Part shown: positions 39,743-49,493 of the stretch, piece after piece
How positions within the stretch are numbered: position 1 is the stretch's first letter
Layout of the letters: every line of letters starts with the position of its first letter
Assembly (NCBI RefSeq): GCF_000023125.1
Contig: NC_013037.1
Location: 4,952,501 to 5,016,500, forward strand
Length of the DNA stretch: 64,000 nt
Reading direction: 5' to 3'
DNA from: Dyadobacter fermentans DSM 18053
GTDB taxonomy: Bacteria; Bacteroidota; Bacteroidia; Cytophagales; Spirosomataceae
Program-made: the position numbers and the translations under genes
The notes under the pieces: model-generated
What the model was told of the DNA's origin: nothing
What the model saw: only the letters and a program-made list of their open reading frames with translations
Database searches by the model: none

Positions 39743-41537
39743 ACACGCCGTCGGGGATCGTGCTCAATGCCTGGTGCGTGCCCGACTCGGCAATGCGGCC
39801 GTCGCGCAGCACGTAAATCATGTCCACCTTGCGAATGGTGGCGAGCCGGTGTGCGATCACGATCGTGGTCCGGTTTTGCATTAATTCGTCCAGCGCGATC
39901 TGTACCAGCTTCTCCGACTCGGCGTCGAGCGAGCTCGTGGCTTCGTCGAGGATAAGGATTTTGGGATCTTTCAAAATGGCCCGCGCGATGGCAATGCGCT
40001 GCCGCTGGCCTCCGGAGAGCTTGATTCCCCGTTCGCCGACGATGGTTTCGAAACCTTCGGGAAACGATTCGATGAATTCCAGGGCATGCGCACGGCGGGC
40101 AGCGTCGATAATGGCCTCGCGTGAGGCCGACGGCTTTCCGTAAGCGATATTTTCATAAATCGTCCCGCCGAACAGCATCACTTCCTGCGGCACGATGGCG
40201 ATGTTTTTGCGTAGTTCCGAAATACCATAATCCCGCACCGGCTTGCCGTCCACCAGGATTTCGCCCGATTGATAATTGTAAAAACGCATCAGAAGCTGCA
40301 CGATGGTCGATTTACCCGCGCCGCTGTATCCCACCAAAGCGATTTTCTCTCCCGCCCGGATGTCCAGCGACACGCCTTTCAACACGGGCAGGTCCGCGCG
40401 CGATGGGTAGGCGAAATGCACGTCCTGATAGGTAACCCGGCCTTCGATATCGCCCGCGACGGCATTCCTGGCAGCTTCGACCGAGACCTCAGCCGTTTCA
40501 CCCAAAATTTCAAAAATCCGCTCCGAGGCACCTACCGTCCGGTTGATTTGCGCATACAAATCGCCCATTCCGCTAATCGACGCGCCGATAAAAGTGGTGT
40601 AGAGAATAAATGTGAACAAGTCAGAAAGCCCGAATTCTCCCGCCTGCACCAGCGCCGCGCCATACCAGATCACGCCCACAATGCCGCCGAACATCGCAAA
40701 AATGATAAACGAAGCGAACCCGCCCCGAAAGCGGGCGGCAAACAGCATAAGGTTCACCACACGGTCCAGGATGGTGCGGTAGCGATGGATTTCGAGCGGC
40801 TCATTGGTAAATGCCTTCACCACATGCACCGATTGCAAGGTTTCTTCCACCACCACATTCGCCGCTGCGAGCTGATCCTGCGCCTTGCGGGAGAGCCTGC
40901 GCGTGTGACGGCCGAAAAAAACCGAAGCAACGCCAAGCACCGGCACCGTGGCGAGCATGAAGAGCGTGAGTTTCCAGGAAGTATAAAACAAAATGGACAT
41001 ACCGACGATCAATGTCGCCGCCTGCCGGAATAACTCGGCCAGTGTGAATGACAGCAGGCCCTGCAATTGCGAAACATCGGAAGTGATGCGGCTCGTAAGC
41101 TCGCCCACGCGCCGCTCTTCGAGATATGGAACAGGTAATGTGATAATCTTACTGAAAACATCCAGCCGGATATTGTTCACCGCCCTTTCGCTCACCTGGG
41201 AAAACAGGTAGATCCGGAAATATGAAAACACCGCCTGCCCGAGTAGGACCACAAACAAAAGCAGGGTGATCTGATTAATCGAAAACTGCGATTTGCCTTC
41301 GATTACCTCGATAATGCTGCCCACGAGCTTCGGAAATGCGAGCGAGGTGCCGGTCGATAATGCAAGGAACAGCATTCCCGCGGCAAATGTCATGCGGTAC
41401 GGCCTGAGGTAACGCAGCAGATGAAGCGTGATTTTCAGTCCTTCCCATTTGATTTTTCTTACTGCGAATGGCGATTGCAAGTCGTTCCGGGGCAAATCTT
41501 TGCCGGACAGCCCTTTCCCATTTTCTTCTTTGGCCAT
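39693..41537 (-). CDS. ABC exporter, fused permease and ATPase
   Basis: Type IV ABC half-transporter of 614 residues resembling MsbA/multidrug exporters. Six helices lie between residues 45 and 330 (for example MTFAAGMLFLALSTGTSLAF); the ATPase domain has Walker A LVGYSGAGKSTIVQLL, Q-loop IAIVPQEVMLFGG, signature LSGGQRQRIAIARAIL, Walker B KILILDEATSSLD and switch IVIAHRLAT. It should act as a homodimer exporting a lipid or drug. The leftward MutS-type ATPase gene overlaps its 3' end. Confidence 0.9.
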   Translation of the reverse strand: MAKEENGKGLSGKDLPRNDLQSPFAVRKIKWEGLKITLHLLRYLRPYRMTFAAGMLFLALSTGTSLAFPKLVGSIIEVIEGKSQFSINQITLLLFVVLLGQAVFSYFRIYLFSQVSERAVNNIRLDVFSKIITLPVPYLEERRVGELTSRITSDVSQLQGLLSFTLAELFRQAATLIVGMSILFYTSWKLTLFMLATVPVLGVASVFFGRHTRRLSRKAQDQLAAANVVVEETLQSVHVVKAFTNEPLEIHRYRTILDRVVNLMLFAARFRGGFASFIIFAMFGGIVGVIWYGAALVQAGEFGLSDLFTFILYTTFIGASISGMGDLYAQINRTVGASERIFEILGETAEVSVEAARNAVAGDIEGRVTYQDVHFAYPSRADLPVLKGVSLDIRAGEKIALVGYSGAGKSTIVQLLMRFYNYQSGEILVDGKPVRDYGISELRKNIAIVPQEVMLFGGTIYENIAYGKPSASREAIIDAARRAHALEFIESFPEGFETIVGERGIKLSGGQRQRIAIARAILKDPKILILDEATSSLDAESEKLVQIALDELMQNRTTIVIAHRLATIRKVDMIYVLRDGRIAESGTHQALSTIPDGVYANLIKLQFETAIEKY

Positions 41538-41805
41538 TTGATCTGTGTAAAAGCGCGGGACAATCGTCAGCCCGCATCTTTGTATATAATTATTGAATGC
41601 TTGCCTGCAAAAATAAGCAATTATTCAAATGTCATCCGGCTGGGGCAAGGCATCAAGTTTACGTGCGATTTTGGCTAAAAATTGCTATTTTTTGAATGAA
41701 CGGACGATGGGTCCTTTTGCCGGTGCGAAAATGTTGTAAAAAACTTGGGTTTCCCAGGCAACCCTGCTTTTCAATTCTACGTATAGGTTCAAAAAAGCAA
41801 ATAGC

Positions 41806-42375
41806 ATGCCCGAGTATAACTCCGCCGTTCTTCAAGAACTACTCGACGGCTGTTTACAAAAAAACCGCCGCAGTCAGGAGCTGTTATACAAGCAGTTCTA
41901 CGGCTATGCTATGAGCATTTGCTTACGCTATACACGCAGCCGGGAAGAGGCGAAAGAAATACTCAACGATGGATTTTTGAAGGTTTTCACGAAGCTGGAC
42001 AGTTTCGATGCAAGCCGGCCATTTAAAACCTGGTTGAGCAGAATCATGATTAACACAGCCCTCGATCATTACAGACAGGAAGTTCGCAGAGATGTTTTTG
42101 ACGACGTGGAGGTGGCGGAACAGGTGTCCGTCGACGAAACGGTTATCAGCAAGCTTTCCCACGAAGAGCTGGTCGGATTGATCCAGCGCCTGACGCCCGC
42201 ATACCGGCTGGTTTTCAGCTTGTCGGTCATTGATGGCTATACACACGAAGAGATTGCAGAACAACTGAATATTTCGGTTGGGGCGTCAAAGTCGAATTTG
42301 TCGCGTGCAAGGGAAAAGTTGAGAGAAATGTTATCCAAGATTAGTATTGACGACTATGATAGAGTTGCCAGATGA
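41806..42375 (+). CDS. ECF RNA polymerase sigma factor (partner of downstream Dma-like protein)
   Basis: ECF sigma factor of 189 residues: region 2 in LYKQFYGYAMSICLRYTRSREEAKEILNDGFLKVF and region 4 in LTPAYRLVFSLSVIDGYTHEEIAEQLNISVGASKSNLSRA. Its final codons overlap the start of the next gene by 20 bp, indicating translational coupling with a membrane partner that looks like its anti-sigma factor. The upstream 268 bp hold no other gene and only a weak promoter signal. Downstream genes for a Rieske lipoprotein, DUF5777 barrel and YceI protein may be under its control. Confidence 0.9.
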   Translation: MPEYNSAVLQELLDGCLQKNRRSQELLYKQFYGYAMSICLRYTRSREEAKEILNDGFLKVFTKLDSFDASRPFKTWLSRIMINTALDHYRQEVRRDVFDDVEVAEQVSVDETVISKLSHEELVGLIQRLTPAYRLVFSLSVIDGYTHEEIAEQLNISVGASKSNLSRAREKLREMLSKISIDDYDRVAR

Positions 42376-43843
42376 CGAACTGGACAAGCTCTTCAGAAAG
42401 TCATCCGAAGAGCTTGATCCGACATACGAACCCGATGACTGGAACGACCTGCGCAAGCGCCTCGACCAGCAGGATGGGAAAACTCCGGCCGGATGGTGGC
42501 GGAAATGGTGGCCGCTGGGCGTGCTGGCGTTGTTGGTGCCGATTGGATTGATATTGTACCCGTGGGTAGGGGAGGATGGAGGAACGGTAGAGCGGAGGAA
42601 GGAGAAGTCAGAGGTCAATGGGTCAGGTGTTATTGCTGAGGGGGATGGAGCTGAGAACGGTGCCGTTGATAGCGGCGTGAAAGAGGATGAAGGTCTAAAA
42701 GCCGCCGTAACCGTGGAAAATGGTGATGGAATTGTGGATAACGGGATTTCGGGTGTTGATAATGAAACAAAATCCGGCGCTGAAAACAGTGTTGTTGATC
42801 GTAACGGAAAAGCTATTGGAAATAAATTGAAAACCAGTGTCAATCAATCTGGTAAATCTTCCTCAACGTCAGAATTGAATGCTGCTGTTGGTAACAATGG
42901 CAGAAAACCATTGCCCCGGAGCCGATCTAAGGCAGGCGGAGTGTTCTTAGAGCCTAACCGCTCAAAAGTGGAAGGAGGCGACGGGGCTCTTTCTTTTGAA
43001 AACAATACAAATGCGGTCGGCAGCGAAACGTACCTGCCGCAGCAAACGGGCCAGCCGATAGCCACGGGCGAAGCGGAGTCAAAAGCCGAAGAACCAGGTC
43101 GTACAGCGGTTTTTGCATCTGCATTAAGCAGTAAAGGGTTGAGATGGAGTGCATTAGCGCTGCCCGGGATTTCGGAGCCGGTGTATGAGCTGCCCGGGCC
43201 GTCTGCCCCGCCGAAGCCATCCTCACTTTCTGCGGACGATCAGCCGCTGGGCGCGGTACGATTTGGTTACTCGCCCGATCTGAGCACGGTAGGGTTGAAG
43301 GATTTTACAAAACCGGGAACGTCGGTTTCGCTGCTGGTGGAATATTCGGTGTTGCCTAAGCTGTATTTGCAAAGCGGGATGGTGTGGAGTAGGAAGGATT
43401 ATTATGCCCCGGCAGAGGCTTACCAGTTGCCGAAACACGGCTACTATCCTCCATTGGCACTGAGCGGTATCGACGGCGTGTGCAAAGTGCTGGAAATACC
43501 ATTGAATGTGCGGTTCGATATTGCCTCGGGCGAACGGTCACGCTGGTTCGCGACAGGCGGGTTCTCGTCGTACCACATGAATAGTGAAAAATACAAATAC
43601 CATTACATCGATCCGAAGGACCCTAATGCGCAAACACGGAAAGGATGGAACGGAAATACCGGCTGGTACCTGCTTAGTCATGCCAATGTTTCGGCCGGTT
43701 ATGAATATCGGATTTCGCGTAAACTCTCCCTCCTTGCGGAGCCTTCGATCCGGATGCCGCTCAAACGTGTCGGATACGGAAAAGTGAATCTCATTACGAC
43801 AGGCCTCTGGCTATCGGTGCGCTACACCCCTGTTTTCAAGTGA
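42356..43843 (+). CDS. Putative dual-membrane-spanning anti-sigma factor with outer-membrane barrel
   Basis: A 495-residue protein with no N-terminal signal peptide. Residues 1-50 are charged and cytosolic (MIELPDDELDKLFRKSSEEL, then DDWNDLRKRLDQQ); 51-71 is one hydrophobic helix (WWPLGVLALLVPIGLILYPW); about 72-295 is low-complexity Ser/Gly/Glu/Asn-rich linker; about 298-495 is an outer-membrane barrel of PorT type, with alternating aromatic strands and a terminal VRYTPVFK. Such topology links cytosol to outer membrane, as reported for Dma anti-sigma factors of Bacteroides thetaiotaomicron. It overlaps the ECF gene by 20 bp. ATG 42356 is chosen over TTG 42347. Anti-sigma function is inferred. 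Confidence 0.7.
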   Translation: MIELPDDELDKLFRKSSEELDPTYEPDDWNDLRKRLDQQDGKTPAGWWRKWWPLGVLALLVPIGLILYPWVGEDGGTVERRKEKSEVNGSGVIAEGDGAENGAVDSGVKEDEGLKAAVTVENGDGIVDNGISGVDNETKSGAENSVVDRNGKAIGNKLKTSVNQSGKSSSTSELNAAVGNNGRKPLPRSRSKAGGVFLEPNRSKVEGGDGALSFENNTNAVGSETYLPQQTGQPIATGEAESKAEEPGRTAVFASALSSKGLRWSALALPGISEPVYELPGPSAPPKPSSLSADDQPLGAVRFGYSPDLSTVGLKDFTKPGTSVSLLVEYSVLPKLYLQSGMVWSRKDYYAPAEAYQLPKHGYYPPLALSGIDGVCKVLEIPLNVRFDIASGERSRWFATGGFSSYHMNSEKYKYHYIDPKDPNAQTRKGWNGNTGWYLLSHANVSAGYEYRISRKLSLLAEPSIRMPLKRVGYGKVNLITTGLWLSVRYTPVFK

Positions 43844-43922
43844 GCACTATGCCCACATTAGCATTGAATCGTATCTACTAATTTATTCATTATTCACTAT
43901 GAACTCAATTGAAAAAGGAAGC

Positions 43923-44402
43923 ATGAAAAGAGGCGAATTCCTGCGCAGCCTTGGGCTCAGCACCTCAACGTTAATGGCATTCTACTGCCTCGGCACCACT
44001 ATGACGGCCTGCGGGTCCAGCGACGACGATCCGAACCCGAACCCCGACCCGGGGACAGGCACCGGCATCTCGGGAACAACCACCGGCTCGAACATCAATT
44101 TTACCGTGGATCTGACCAATTCGAACACTTCGAAGCTGAAAACCAATGGCAATTCTATCATTACCGGCGATGTGCTGGTAGCCAAAACCACCGCCGGCAG
44201 CTATGTGGCGTTGAGCAAGATTTGTACCCACGAGGGAAATCCGGTTGCATACAGGACGACATCCAATGATATTTTCTGTCAAAGCCACGGCTCGACATTC
44301 ACCACGGCCGGTGCCGTAACGAACGGTCCGGCTACCGCTGCATTGAAAACGTATACTGTGACCGTTTCTTCCGACGGCAACACTTTAACCGTGAAAGCTT
44401 AA
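43923..44402 (+). CDS. Rieske [2Fe-2S] domain lipoprotein
   Basis: A 159-residue lipoprotein. ATG 43923 (MKRGEFLRSLGLSTSTLMAF) gives a signal with lipobox TMTACGSS, followed by a Ser/Asp/Pro/Gly-rich spacer and a Rieske fold. Cluster ligands are visible in the two canonical boxes: CTHEG (Cys and His) and FCQSHGS (Cys and His). It is likely an extracytoplasmic electron carrier. A DUF5777 barrel and a YceI protein follow on the same strand with 12-bp gaps, a recurring Bacteroidota grouping of uncertain function. Confidence 0.87.
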   Translation: MKRGEFLRSLGLSTSTLMAFYCLGTTMTACGSSDDDPNPNPDPGTGTGISGTTTGSNINFTVDLTNSNTSKLKTNGNSIITGDVLVAKTTAGSYVALSKICTHEGNPVAYRTTSNDIFCQSHGSTFTTAGAVTNGPATAALKTYTVTVSSDGNTLTVKA

Positions 44403-44414
44403 CCTGCACCGACC

Positions 44415-45302
44415 ATGAAAGTACTCCGCCTACTCGTGATGTTGATGGGTTCATCAACAGTTTTATATGCACAGGACGACTTGCTGAACGAACTTTCCAA
44501 ACAGGACAGCGCGCAAACGGTGCCGGTTACCGCCACTTTCAAATCGACGCGCGTGGTGAATGGGCAGTCCGTGGAAACGATGAAAAAGAAGCACCTCGAT
44601 TTCCGCATTTCGCACCGTTTCGGGAAGCTTAATTCGGGCGCCTACCAGTTTTTCGGGCTCGACCAGGCGACGATGCGGCTCGGTTTCGAATACGGGCTGA
44701 CGGACGATCTGATGATCGGAGTGGGGCGCAGCACGTCGCAGAAGGTGTATGATTTTTTTGGTAAATATAAACTACTGAAACAGAGCACCGGCGCACGCAT
44801 TATGCCGGTTTCGGTGACGCTGTTTGGCGGCACGGGCGTGGCTACGGTGGATAAGGAGCGGGAGTTTCAGGATAAGCTTTATTACACGGCCCAGGTGCTG
44901 GTAGCGCGCAAGTTTGGCGAAAGATTGTCGCTCCAACTGTCGCCAACCTACTTGTACCGCACCATGCCGGACGTGACCGGCGATGAAAAAGTAGTACTTG
45001 CCGTGGGCATCGGCGGGAGGTTTAAGCTGTCGAAACGCGTGTCTTTGAACGGGGAGTACTTTTACACCGCCCGCGAGAAGAACACGGTCACGGCCCCTTA
45101 CCACGATTCCATGTCATTCGGCGTCGATATTGAGACGGGCGGGCACGTTTTTCAGCTGCATTTTACCAATTCCCTGGGCATGATCGAGAAGCAATTCATC
45201 GGTGAAACCGCCGGCAGCTGGGGCAAAGGGGATATCCATTACGGGTTCAACATTTCCCGGACTTTCAGTTTCGACAAGAAGAATAAGAGACAGCCAAACT
45301 GA
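44415..45302 (+). CDS. DUF5777 family beta-barrel protein
   Basis: A 295-residue outer-membrane-type protein: signal peptide (LLVMLMGSSTVLYAQ), then KKKHLDFRISHRFGKLNSGAYQFFGLDQATMRLGFEYGLTDDLMIGVG, the family pattern, and a run of amphipathic strands. The function is unknown; family members often occur beside Rieske, cytochrome or YceI genes. It begins 12 bp after the Rieske gene stop and ends 12 bp before the YceI gene, so all three are one transcript. Confidence 0.85.
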   Translation: MKVLRLLVMLMGSSTVLYAQDDLLNELSKQDSAQTVPVTATFKSTRVVNGQSVETMKKKHLDFRISHRFGKLNSGAYQFFGLDQATMRLGFEYGLTDDLMIGVGRSTSQKVYDFFGKYKLLKQSTGARIMPVSVTLFGGTGVATVDKEREFQDKLYYTAQVLVARKFGERLSLQLSPTYLYRTMPDVTGDEKVVLAVGIGGRFKLSKRVSLNGEYFYTAREKNTVTAPYHDSMSFGVDIETGGHVFQLHFTNSLGMIEKQFIGETAGSWGKGDIHYGFNISRTFSFDKKNKRQPN

Positions 45303-45314
45303 TCCATTACCATC

Positions 45315-45875
45315 ATGAAAACGCACTTTTTCCGCGTGGCCTGCCTGGCCATGTTCAGTACCGCTTTGCTCTCTGAAAATGCATTCGCCCAAATGTTTTC
45401 AACCTCCGGCGGCAATACGAAGTTTTCGGCATCGACGCCTTTGGAAAACATCGAGGCAGAAAACAAAAAATCGCAAGTGATCCTGAATACGGCGAACAGC
45501 GAAATCGCGATCCGGATGAACATGCGCGACTTCGTTTTCCCGAACAAGCTCATGCAGGAGCATTTCAATGAGAATTACATCGAATCGGAGAAATACCCGA
45601 CGGCCACGTTTTCGGGCAAAGTCGATAAGGCGCCGGATTATGCCAAAGACGGCGATTACGACGTGTCAGCCACCGGGAAGTTCACGGTTCACGGCGTGAC
45701 CAGGGAGCGGACGATCAAAGGGAAGATGAAAGTGGAGGGAGGTAAAATCACGATCAGTTCCGACTTCGAGGTGGCGCTGGTGGACCATAAAATCGAAGTA
45801 CCAAAAGTGGTTTTCGTGAAAATCGCGCAGATCATCAAAGTGAAGGCGCAGTATGTGCTGTCGCCAAAAAAATGA
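45315..45875 (+). CDS. YceI family periplasmic protein
   Basis: A 186-residue exported lipocalin-like protein of the YceI family, which binds isoprenoid or amphipathic molecules in characterised members. A signal peptide (ACLAMFSTALLSENAFA) precedes the domain; FNENYIESEKYPTATFSGKVD and GKFTVHGVTRERTIKGKM are diagnostic. It is last in the Rieske-DUF5777-YceI unit and followed by two terminators. A quinone- or carotenoid-like ligand for the redox partners is a reasonable guess only. Confidence 0.9.
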   Translation: MKTHFFRVACLAMFSTALLSENAFAQMFSTSGGNTKFSASTPLENIEAENKKSQVILNTANSEIAIRMNMRDFVFPNKLMQEHFNENYIESEKYPTATFSGKVDKAPDYAKDGDYDVSATGKFTVHGVTRERTIKGKMKVEGGKITISSDFEVALVDHKIEVPKVVFVKIAQIIKVKAQYVLSPKK

Positions 45876-45876
45876 T

Positions 45877-45913
45877 AAAGACCTGGCAAGGTTTTCCGTG
45901 TTGTCAGGTCTTT
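45877..45913 (+). terminator. First of two terminators after the YceI gene
   Basis: AAAGACCTGGCAA (45877-45889) pairs with TTGTCAGGTCTTT (45901-45913), 13 bp with one G-U, then ATTAAAA. Confidence 0.75.
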
Positions 45914-45934
45914 ATTAAAACTGTGGGGTATTGC

Positions 45935-45972
45935 AGACTTGGTAAGCCTTTCTTGAACTTGCCAAGTCTTTT
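45935..45972 (+). terminator. Second terminator after the YceI gene
   Basis: AGACTTGGTAAG (45935-45946) pairs with CTTGCCAAGTCT (45958-45969) over 12 bp with one wobble, then TTT. It ends just before the stop codon of the convergent GH2 gene. Confidence 0.75.
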
Positions 45973-45974
45973 CA

Positions 45975-49493
<3,519 letters not shown>

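What the first reader, a model, noticed from the sequence alone, without database searches (positions are those of the whole stretch)
41806..43843. ECF sigma factor fused by overlap to a protein that appears to span both membranes
Seen: a 20-bp overlap between an ECF sigma gene and a 495-residue protein with no signal peptide, a charged N-terminus, one helix at residues 51-71, a roughly 225-residue low-complexity linker and a C-terminal PorT-like barrel with an aromatic end. Known: Dma-type anti-sigma factors reported in Bacteroides thetaiotaomicron share this plan and, as I recall, affect vesiculation. Inference: this is a Cytophagales version passing outer-membrane state straight to transcription. 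The linker is long enough in principle to cross the periplasm.
Basis: partly seen in the sequence, partly recalled or inferred. Interest (0 to 1): 0.72.

Follow-up and report, generated by a model that had tools for sequence, protein, structure and literature searches.

The report
Outer-membrane-anchored switch for redox genes
A bacterium of the genus Dyadobacter carries a protein predicted to reach from the inside of the cell through both membranes, hold back a gene switch, and so control a small set of electron-handling envelope proteins; it keeps a single cysteine, near the outer rim of its barrel, which gives a concrete first guess at what such proteins sense.

Summary
In detail: an ECF sigma gene (41806-42375) overlaps by 20 bp a 495-residue protein (42356-43843) with a charged N-terminus, one predicted membrane helix (46-67), a mostly disordered linker and an OmpA-type barrel (299-490). 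A Dma/Reo-type anti-sigma factor is supported by profile similarity to Dma2-like proteins at both ends; sigma binding and membrane insertion are untested. (1) The pair heads an operon with Rieske, DUF5777 (or a b561-like protein) and YceI genes: 79 of 104 orthologous loci have at least one of these downstream, and 31 of 38 Mucilaginibacter-type loci have YceI plus DUF5777. (2) GCAACC-N16-CGTA precedes the operon in 19 of 21 genera sampled and a PF03640 lipoprotein gene, often unlinked, in 29 of 30 loci; Mucilaginibacter-type loci show GCAACC-N16-CGTG (34 of 34). In two genomes with the Rieske genes elsewhere, the motif precedes those too. (3) One cysteine, C376, predicted lumen-facing near the outer rim, is kept in 104 of 105 aligned orthologs and 38 of 38 Mucilaginibacter-type loci; five weaker paralogs have none. 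Best reading: a Dma-type switch for a compact envelope redox regulon; thiol sensing is possible, unproven.

The parts
41758..41783 (+). ECF-type promoter motif GCAACC-N16-CGTA, ending 22 bp before the sigma start codon
   Evidence: Only match in the window (28 of 100 shuffles also have one or more, so conservation carries the argument); before the sigma operon in 19 of 21 genus-level loci
41806..42375 (+). ECF sigma factor, 189 aa
   Evidence: Pfam Sigma70_r2 and r4_2; groups with sigmas beside Dma1/Dma2-like genes
42356..43843 (+). [quoted passage not shown]
42356..42375 (+). 20-bp overlap of the two reading frames
   Evidence: overlap in most orthologs (list of gaps)
42356..42490 (+). residues 1-45: predicted cytoplasmic sigma-binding segment (DELDKLFRKS...W..L..RLD)
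   Evidence: Profile similarity to Dma2-like N-termini; in the own genome the profile's top 4 hits, own included, and 6 of 16 in all lie directly behind ECF sigma genes
42491..42556 (+). residues 46-67: inner-membrane helix
   Evidence: flank charges fit N-inside
42557..43249 (+). residues 68-298: linker, mostly disordered
   Evidence: corresponding length 121 to 328, median 257, in 105 aligned orthologs
43250..43825 (+). residues 299-490: 8-strand OmpA-type barrel
   Evidence: PF13568 matches in some distant relatives
43481..43483 (+). codon of C376, the only cysteine; strand 4, predicted lumen side near the extracellular rim
43899..44402 (+). Rieske [2Fe-2S] protein with a lipobox-like N-terminus (by eye)
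   Evidence: PF00355; CxH...CxxH in 71 of 71 family members found
44415..45302 (+). DUF5777 barrel
   Evidence: PF19089, E 5e-97
45315..45875 (+). YceI-family protein
   Evidence: PF04264

Best explanation
The pair is a sigma factor and its Dma/Reo-type anti-sigma factor. The N-terminal 45 residues of the 495-aa protein hold the ECF sigma factor in the cytoplasm; one helix crosses the inner membrane, a linker of 231 residues crosses the periplasm, and an OmpA-type barrel sits in the outer membrane. A disturbance at the barrel releases sigma, which transcribes from GCAACC-N16-CGTA its own operon (sigma, anti-sigma, Rieske protein, DUF5777 barrel, YceI) and an unlinked PF03640 lipoprotein gene (own genome 4354592-4355446). 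The result is a small, autoregulated envelope redox module. Shown by computation: predicted architecture, homology to Dma2-like proteins, conserved gene order, conserved promoter motif at the same genes across genera. Inferred: sigma binding, insertion in both membranes, release, and the redox role of the products.
For: Architecture and fold. Similarity at both ends to Dma2-like proteins above every shuffle; two of those loci were picked by their DUF4943 neighbour, as in the published dma2 operon, the rest of the 20 by similarity. Gene order: 79 of 104 orthologs have Rieske, b561-like, DUF5777 or YceI genes downstream (yceI 77, rieske 70); 31 of 38 Mucilaginibacter-type loci have YceI plus DUF5777. 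Promoter: 19 of 21 genus-level loci, 0 of 5 paralogous sigma loci. Lipoprotein: 29 of the 30 best-matching loci; by coordinates 15 of them lie on another contig than sigma or at least 31 kb away (motif in 14), 13 adjoin sigma, and for 2 no sigma place was listed (motif in both). In G106 and G107, whose sigma loci L213 and L044 have no module gene beside them, intergenic motif hits precede a distant Rieske operon in each. A count of gapped words without a preset motif put GCAACC-N16-CGTG at the top, in 34 of 34 upstream regions.
Against: Contact of residues 1-45 with sigma could not be tested; model confidence there is low and covariation was uninformative. 25 of 104 orthologs have no module gene beside them. 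Genome-wide the motif is not clearly enriched: 30 against 50 for the reversed control in the own genome, mixed in six others; single hits mean little without position and conservation. L046 and L055 lack it, and G109, the genome of L046, has no hit before a module gene. In G005 no lipoprotein hit was seen among the 11 of 12 hits fetched. Outside the family the exact motif is absent from several loci, and from 38 of 38 Mucilaginibacter-type loci before one base is relaxed.
Confidence: 0.75

Rival explanations
1. Same regulator, but the signal is general outer-membrane damage or faulty barrel assembly, as proposed for Reo; C376 is a structural or ligand residue, and the redox genes are one arm of an envelope stress response.
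For: EcfO-Reo of Phocaeicola vulgatus is induced by BcpT and Bd-A; bacteroidetocin A is described as binding BamA (PMC13114119, PMC9308784; passages). Dma1/Dma2-like proteins have no cysteine at this column but the same plan.
Against: Does not by itself explain why one cysteine, and as a rule no other, is kept in nearly every ortholog while seven of eight other pairs of the own genome have none in the part held.
Confidence: 0.5
2. The protein does not act as one chain across both membranes: it is cut in the linker, and the barrel and the membrane-bound anti-sigma part act separately.
For: The linker is variable (mean top-residue fraction 0.33) and mostly without predicted structure, as a protease target would be.
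Against: In the 104 orthologs both ends lie in one gene and the linker never falls below 121 residues; Reo is described as spanning all five compartments (PMC13114119, passage).
Confidence: 0.12
3. The motif belongs to another sigma factor that transcribes this operon, and the local sigma has other targets.
For: Nothing was tested in vitro; the own genome has 24 sigma-like matches at E up to 1e-8.
Against: The motif goes with orthologs of this sigma and not with five paralogous sigma loci (0 of 5), and recurs with one base changed in Mucilaginibacter-type loci.
Confidence: 0.08
4. The protein is not an inhibitor but a positive partner of sigma.
For: I found no experiment on this branch.
Against: Dma1, Dma2 and Reo, of the same plan, act as inhibitors genetically (PMC13088901, PMC9308784, PMC13114119; passages).
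Confidence: 0.05

Closest known systems
Dma1, Dma2 (with Das1, Das2) of Bacteroides thetaiotaomicron
   Same: N-terminal sigma-binding segment, one helix, disordered tether, C-terminal barrel, beside an ECF sigma (PMC13088901); profile similarity of both ends to Dma2-like proteins; sigmas in one group
   Different: Linked genes are Rieske, DUF5777 or b561-like, YceI and PF03640, not NigD or DUF4943/DUF4858. The conserved cysteine is on strand 4; the Dma2-like proteins keep two others (C285 and C350 invariant in 20), and four of five Dma1-like proteins have one in the next strand.
EcfO-Reo of Bacteroides fragilis and Phocaeicola vulgatus
   Same: Anti-sigma said to span cytoplasm to surface; induction after prolonged oxygen exposure (as told in PMC13114119; the 2013 paper was not held)
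   Different: Regulon there includes NigD genes and an LPS-region glycosyltransferase gene (PMC9308784, PMC13114119; passages); no Rieske or YceI link in the passages seen
FecR/FecI-type cell-surface signalling
   Same: An outer-membrane event is relayed to an ECF sigma
   Different: Uses a separate TonB-dependent receptor (general knowledge); here one protein, no FecR domain found. Sigmas of the own genome with FecR-like neighbours (judged by eye) lie in another group
SigX-CfrX-OprF of Pseudomonas aeruginosa
   Same: An OmpA-like porin proposed to take part in sensing for an ECF sigma (PMC8999054, passages)
   Different: Separate proteins and a soluble anti-sigma

Membership tests
Dma family | N-terminal anti-sigma (sigma-binding) domain | tested here: inconclusive
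   Homologous to Dma2-like N-termini and 6 of 16 profile hits lie behind ECF sigmas, but binding was not tested and model confidence is low
Dma family | single transmembrane helix after the N-terminal domain | tested here: met
   (prediction)
Dma family | long intrinsically disordered tether | tested here: met
   (prediction)
Dma family | C-terminal beta-barrel | tested here: met
   (prediction)
Dma family | encoded next to an ECF21 sigma factor | tested here: inconclusive
   Next to an ECF sigma; no ECF21 model was at hand. It groups with Das1/Das2-like sigmas (94/96), in a branch that also holds 4 sigmas not labelled Dma-linked; the label needs 4 changes on the tree against a mean of 12 in shuffles
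Dma family | found only in Bacteroidota | tested here: inconclusive
   The named hits are Dyadobacter and 37 of 38 loci bear Bacteroidota names; one MAG is labelled Thalassovita (L411). The scan covered bacterial and archaeal genomes but with patterns of one branch only
Dma family | loss raises vesicle production (Dma1, Dma2) | not testable with these tools
   Needs a mutant
FecR-type anti-sigma | FecR domain | tested here: not met
   No Pfam or NCBIfam family at E up to 1 in the 495-aa protein

The most novel reading that the evidence does not exclude
C376 is a reactive thiol in the mouth of an outer-membrane barrel: its oxidation, or a mixed disulfide with a surface partner, is passed through one 495-residue chain to the cytoplasm and frees sigma to make envelope electron-transfer proteins. 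That would be one-protein redox sensing from outside the cell to transcription.
Probability: 0.25. Interest if true: 0.85.

Novelty: new variant of a known kind. Interest (0 to 1): 0.64.

Why it matters
What Dma/Reo-type anti-sigma factors sense is open in the papers seen: PMC13088901 (Discussion read) suggests an unknown glycan for Dma2, PMC13114119 (passages) outer-membrane stress for Reo. This branch offers a defined promoter, a small predicted regulon and one nearly invariant residue, so regulon and trigger can both be tested with one reporter and one point mutant in an environmental laboratory strain. It also gives a regulatory context for DUF5777; a search for that name found no paper in the library.

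Tried and rejected
Covariation between sigma and anti-sigma in 134 pairs: uninformative. Three of the top four pairs fall in the overlapping reading frames; many of the rest pair sigma with the barrel. Distance correlation with sigma was 0.84 for residues 1-45 and 0.87 for the barrel.

Search of solved structures with the family profile: best E 0.1, unrelated proteins. Pfam and NCBIfam on the window's anti-sigma: nothing; PF13568 passes its cut-off in some distant relatives only. A VIA-align or Foldseek family not listed is not excluded.

A generic sigma-70 and terminator scan of 41500-46100 gave no more than shuffles.

The motif alone as a genome search: 30 hits against 50 reversed-control hits in the own genome. 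Ten of the 30 have the 16-base spacer and four of these are intergenic before an ORF; besides sigma and the lipoprotein these are a LacI-like regulator and a 456-aa protein. Among the hits fetched from six other genomes (60 of 69) only sigma, the lipoprotein and the Rieske gene recurred before ORFs, so I do not count the other two. The start of some ORFs was called too far upstream by my script; the G005 sigma hit (L357) is flagged 'inside' for that reason, and some misses have the same cause.

A cysteine pair in the PF03640 lipoprotein was seen in 17 of 30 loci with a strict pattern: not used.

Full report
Where and what. The window lies in a 6.97-Mb genome that I take for a Dyadobacter, since the named close orthologs are all from that genus. 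The ECF sigma gene 41806-42375 overlaps by 20 bp a 495-aa gene that starts at ATG 42356. On the same strand follow a Rieske protein (43899-44402), a DUF5777 barrel (44415-45302) and a YceI protein (45315-45875).

Relation to Dma. The published plan is an N-terminal sigma-binding domain, a helix, a disordered tether and a barrel, beside an ECF21 sigma (PMC13088901: abstract, passages and Discussion read). That paper names BT_1557, in the dma2 operon, as a DUF4943 protein. I searched DUF4943 (the accession recalled, the name confirmed by the tool) in 395 genomes of the class: 10 have it. In two of the six regions fetched (L076, L077) it sits behind a sigma gene and a protein of this plan. A search of 60 genomes of that genus with the L076 protein hit 59, and 20 sequences were aligned. 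Profile comparison: residues 1-48 score 27.1 (100 shuffles, at most 16.1); N-terminus plus helix E 1.1e-7; barrels 58.2 (50 shuffles, at most 21.6). The full-length comparison aligned the barrel only (probability 80, E 1.3e-5). In a tree of 35 sigmas the 18 labelled Dma-linked, Das1- and Das2-like ones included, fall in one group of 22 (94/96) with four others; the label needs four changes, against a mean of 12 in shuffles. The labels rest on neighbours and plan, partly judged by eye.

The N-terminal profile, run over the own genome, gave 16 hits up to E 10; the top four (own included) and six in all lie directly behind ECF sigma genes. By eye eight of 24 sigma matches, own included, are followed by a long ORF of this plan; some of these ORFs run off the fetched piece, so not all barrels were seen.

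Distribution. In 200 genomes of the family sigma has a match at E up to 1e-50 in 136, in 26 of 36 genera. I fetched 33 places. Of these 111 pieces (L033-L063, L158-L237) entered the count. One had no sigma (L059), leaving 110 rows; six were dropped from the ortholog set: L036 for its run of N, and L053, L054, L056, L057 and L062 for weak matches to the barrel or N-terminal profile. 104 orthologs remain, four of them from outside the family (L058, L060, L061, L063).

Neighbours. Of the 104, 79 have at least one of Rieske, b561-like, DUF5777 or YceI within six genes downstream on the same strand (yceI 77, rieske 70) and 25 have none. The middle gene is DUF5777 in Dyadobacter and near relatives and a b561-like protein in many others. 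The latter has weak Pfam support, below the cut-off, in one of six members scanned, but five histidines are kept in over 90 percent of 57 sequences. In 38 loci from a scan of named genomes, 33 of them Mucilaginibacter, 38 of 38 have sigma upstream and 31 of 38 have YceI and DUF5777 downstream. That scan used three sequences of that branch, so it samples that branch.

Promoter. GCAACC-N16-CGTA lies at 41758-41783. Of 101 loci anchored (33 could not be anchored) it lies before sigma in 66. Most misses are loci fetched with only 300 bp upstream; in relatives of the same genera the operon starts with another gene, which probably explains them. Elsewhere in those loci there were 12 hits in 1.54 million strand-bases; five lie between anti-sigma and Rieske and five about 1 kb before sigma. 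Where 4 kb upstream was held, 19 of 21 loci, one per genus (L033-L052, L055), have the motif before sigma or before a lipoprotein gene that heads the operon (L042 is counted because the start of its first gene was misplaced). L046 and L055 lack it. Five paralogous sigma loci lack it (0 of 5), and of four loci outside the family only L060 has it; L367 and L368, from other families of the class, have it too.

Independent checks. In the own genome one of four intergenic N16 hits lies 47 bp before a PF03640 lipoprotein gene about 640 kb away. Homologs of that gene, 51 and 57 percent identical, are the first gene of the sigma operon in L039 and L043. 55 of 121 genomes have the lipoprotein at E up to 1e-30; of the 30 best loci, 29 have the motif 68 to 135 bp before the start of the match, all with N16; L297 has none. 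By coordinates 13 adjoin sigma, 15 do not (motif in 14) and for 2 no sigma place was listed (motif in both). In G106 and G107 the intergenic hits include sigma and a distant Rieske operon each; G109 gave none of this kind; 30 of the 35 hits of these three genomes were examined. In G012 and G014 they are sigma and the lipoprotein; in G005 no lipoprotein hit was seen among 11 of 12. In 34 of the 38 Mucilaginibacter-type loci the upstream region could be anchored, and an open count of gapped words put GCAACC-N16-CGTG first, in 34 of 34: the same first box and spacer, one base changed.

The cysteine. The window protein has one cysteine, C376. Of 116 long proteins of the Dyadobacter search, 115 have exactly one and one has two. 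Among 105 aligned sequences (104 plus the window) 104 have Cys at this column and L061 has Trp; of the 104, 98 have exactly one, five have two, one none. In a class-wide sample of 247 genomes 15 distinct proteins at E up to 3e-50 all have it (some are the same proteins as above), and 8 of the 15 have a module gene in the short flank held; five weaker matches (E 6e-25 to 2e-17) have no cysteine at all. The 38 loci have exactly one each, in the motif C-x3-[DE]-[IVL]-P. Of the eight other pairs of the own genome looked at, seven have no cysteine in the part held and one has a single Cys elsewhere. Strand 4 runs from 369 to 391; even positions 380 to 388 are polar or Pro (D/E, P, N, R, D), odd positions 379 to 385 and 389 hydrophobic; 378 is M or V. 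C376 thus shares the polar, lumen face. With the barrel entered from the periplasm, it lies near the outer end. This is inference from pattern and topology.

Mechanism. Shown: architecture by prediction, homology, gene order, promoter conservation. Inferred: residues 1-45 hold sigma; a disturbance of the barrel frees it; the operon and the lipoprotein are induced. That the products act in envelope electron transfer or redox defence follows from their families, not from a test. Thiol sensing fits the lone cysteine, the make-up of the regulon and the oxygen response told for EcfO-Reo (PMC13114119, passage). Against it, Reo also answers to toxins (PMC9308784, PMC13114119, passages) and Dma1/2-like proteins have no cysteine at this column, though most of those looked at have one in the next strand.

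Print search. The listings showed me no paper on this branch, its promoter or its cysteine. The library holds open-licence papers only; the 2024 Dma1 and 2013 EcfO papers were not held.

Noticed in passing
L064 (own genome 4459000-4471500): Another pair of this plan in the same genome is followed by a serpin gene (PF00079, E 5e-103); its anti-sigma has no cysteine.
   Followed up: no
Own genome, L112-L135: By eye eight of 24 ECF-like sigmas, own included, are followed by long ORFs of Dma-type plan, against three Dma proteins named for B. thetaiotaomicron.
   Followed up: partly
42911-42988 (residues 186-211): A well-conserved block (LPRSRSKAGGV.LEPNRSK.EGGDGA) inside the otherwise variable linker, kept in Dyadobacter but not in the wider family consensus.
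   Followed up: no
L039-L047, L158-L237: In many genera a b561-like protein with five conserved histidines takes the place of DUF5777 in the operon.
   Followed up: partly
L411: A MAG contig labelled Thalassovita carries sigma, anti-sigma, PF03640-type lipoprotein, YceI and DUF5777 together; possibly a misplaced Bacteroidota contig.
   Followed up: no
L063, L049: Orthologs beside a CHRD-domain protein and beside a thioredoxin-like protein instead of the Rieske module.
   Followed up: no
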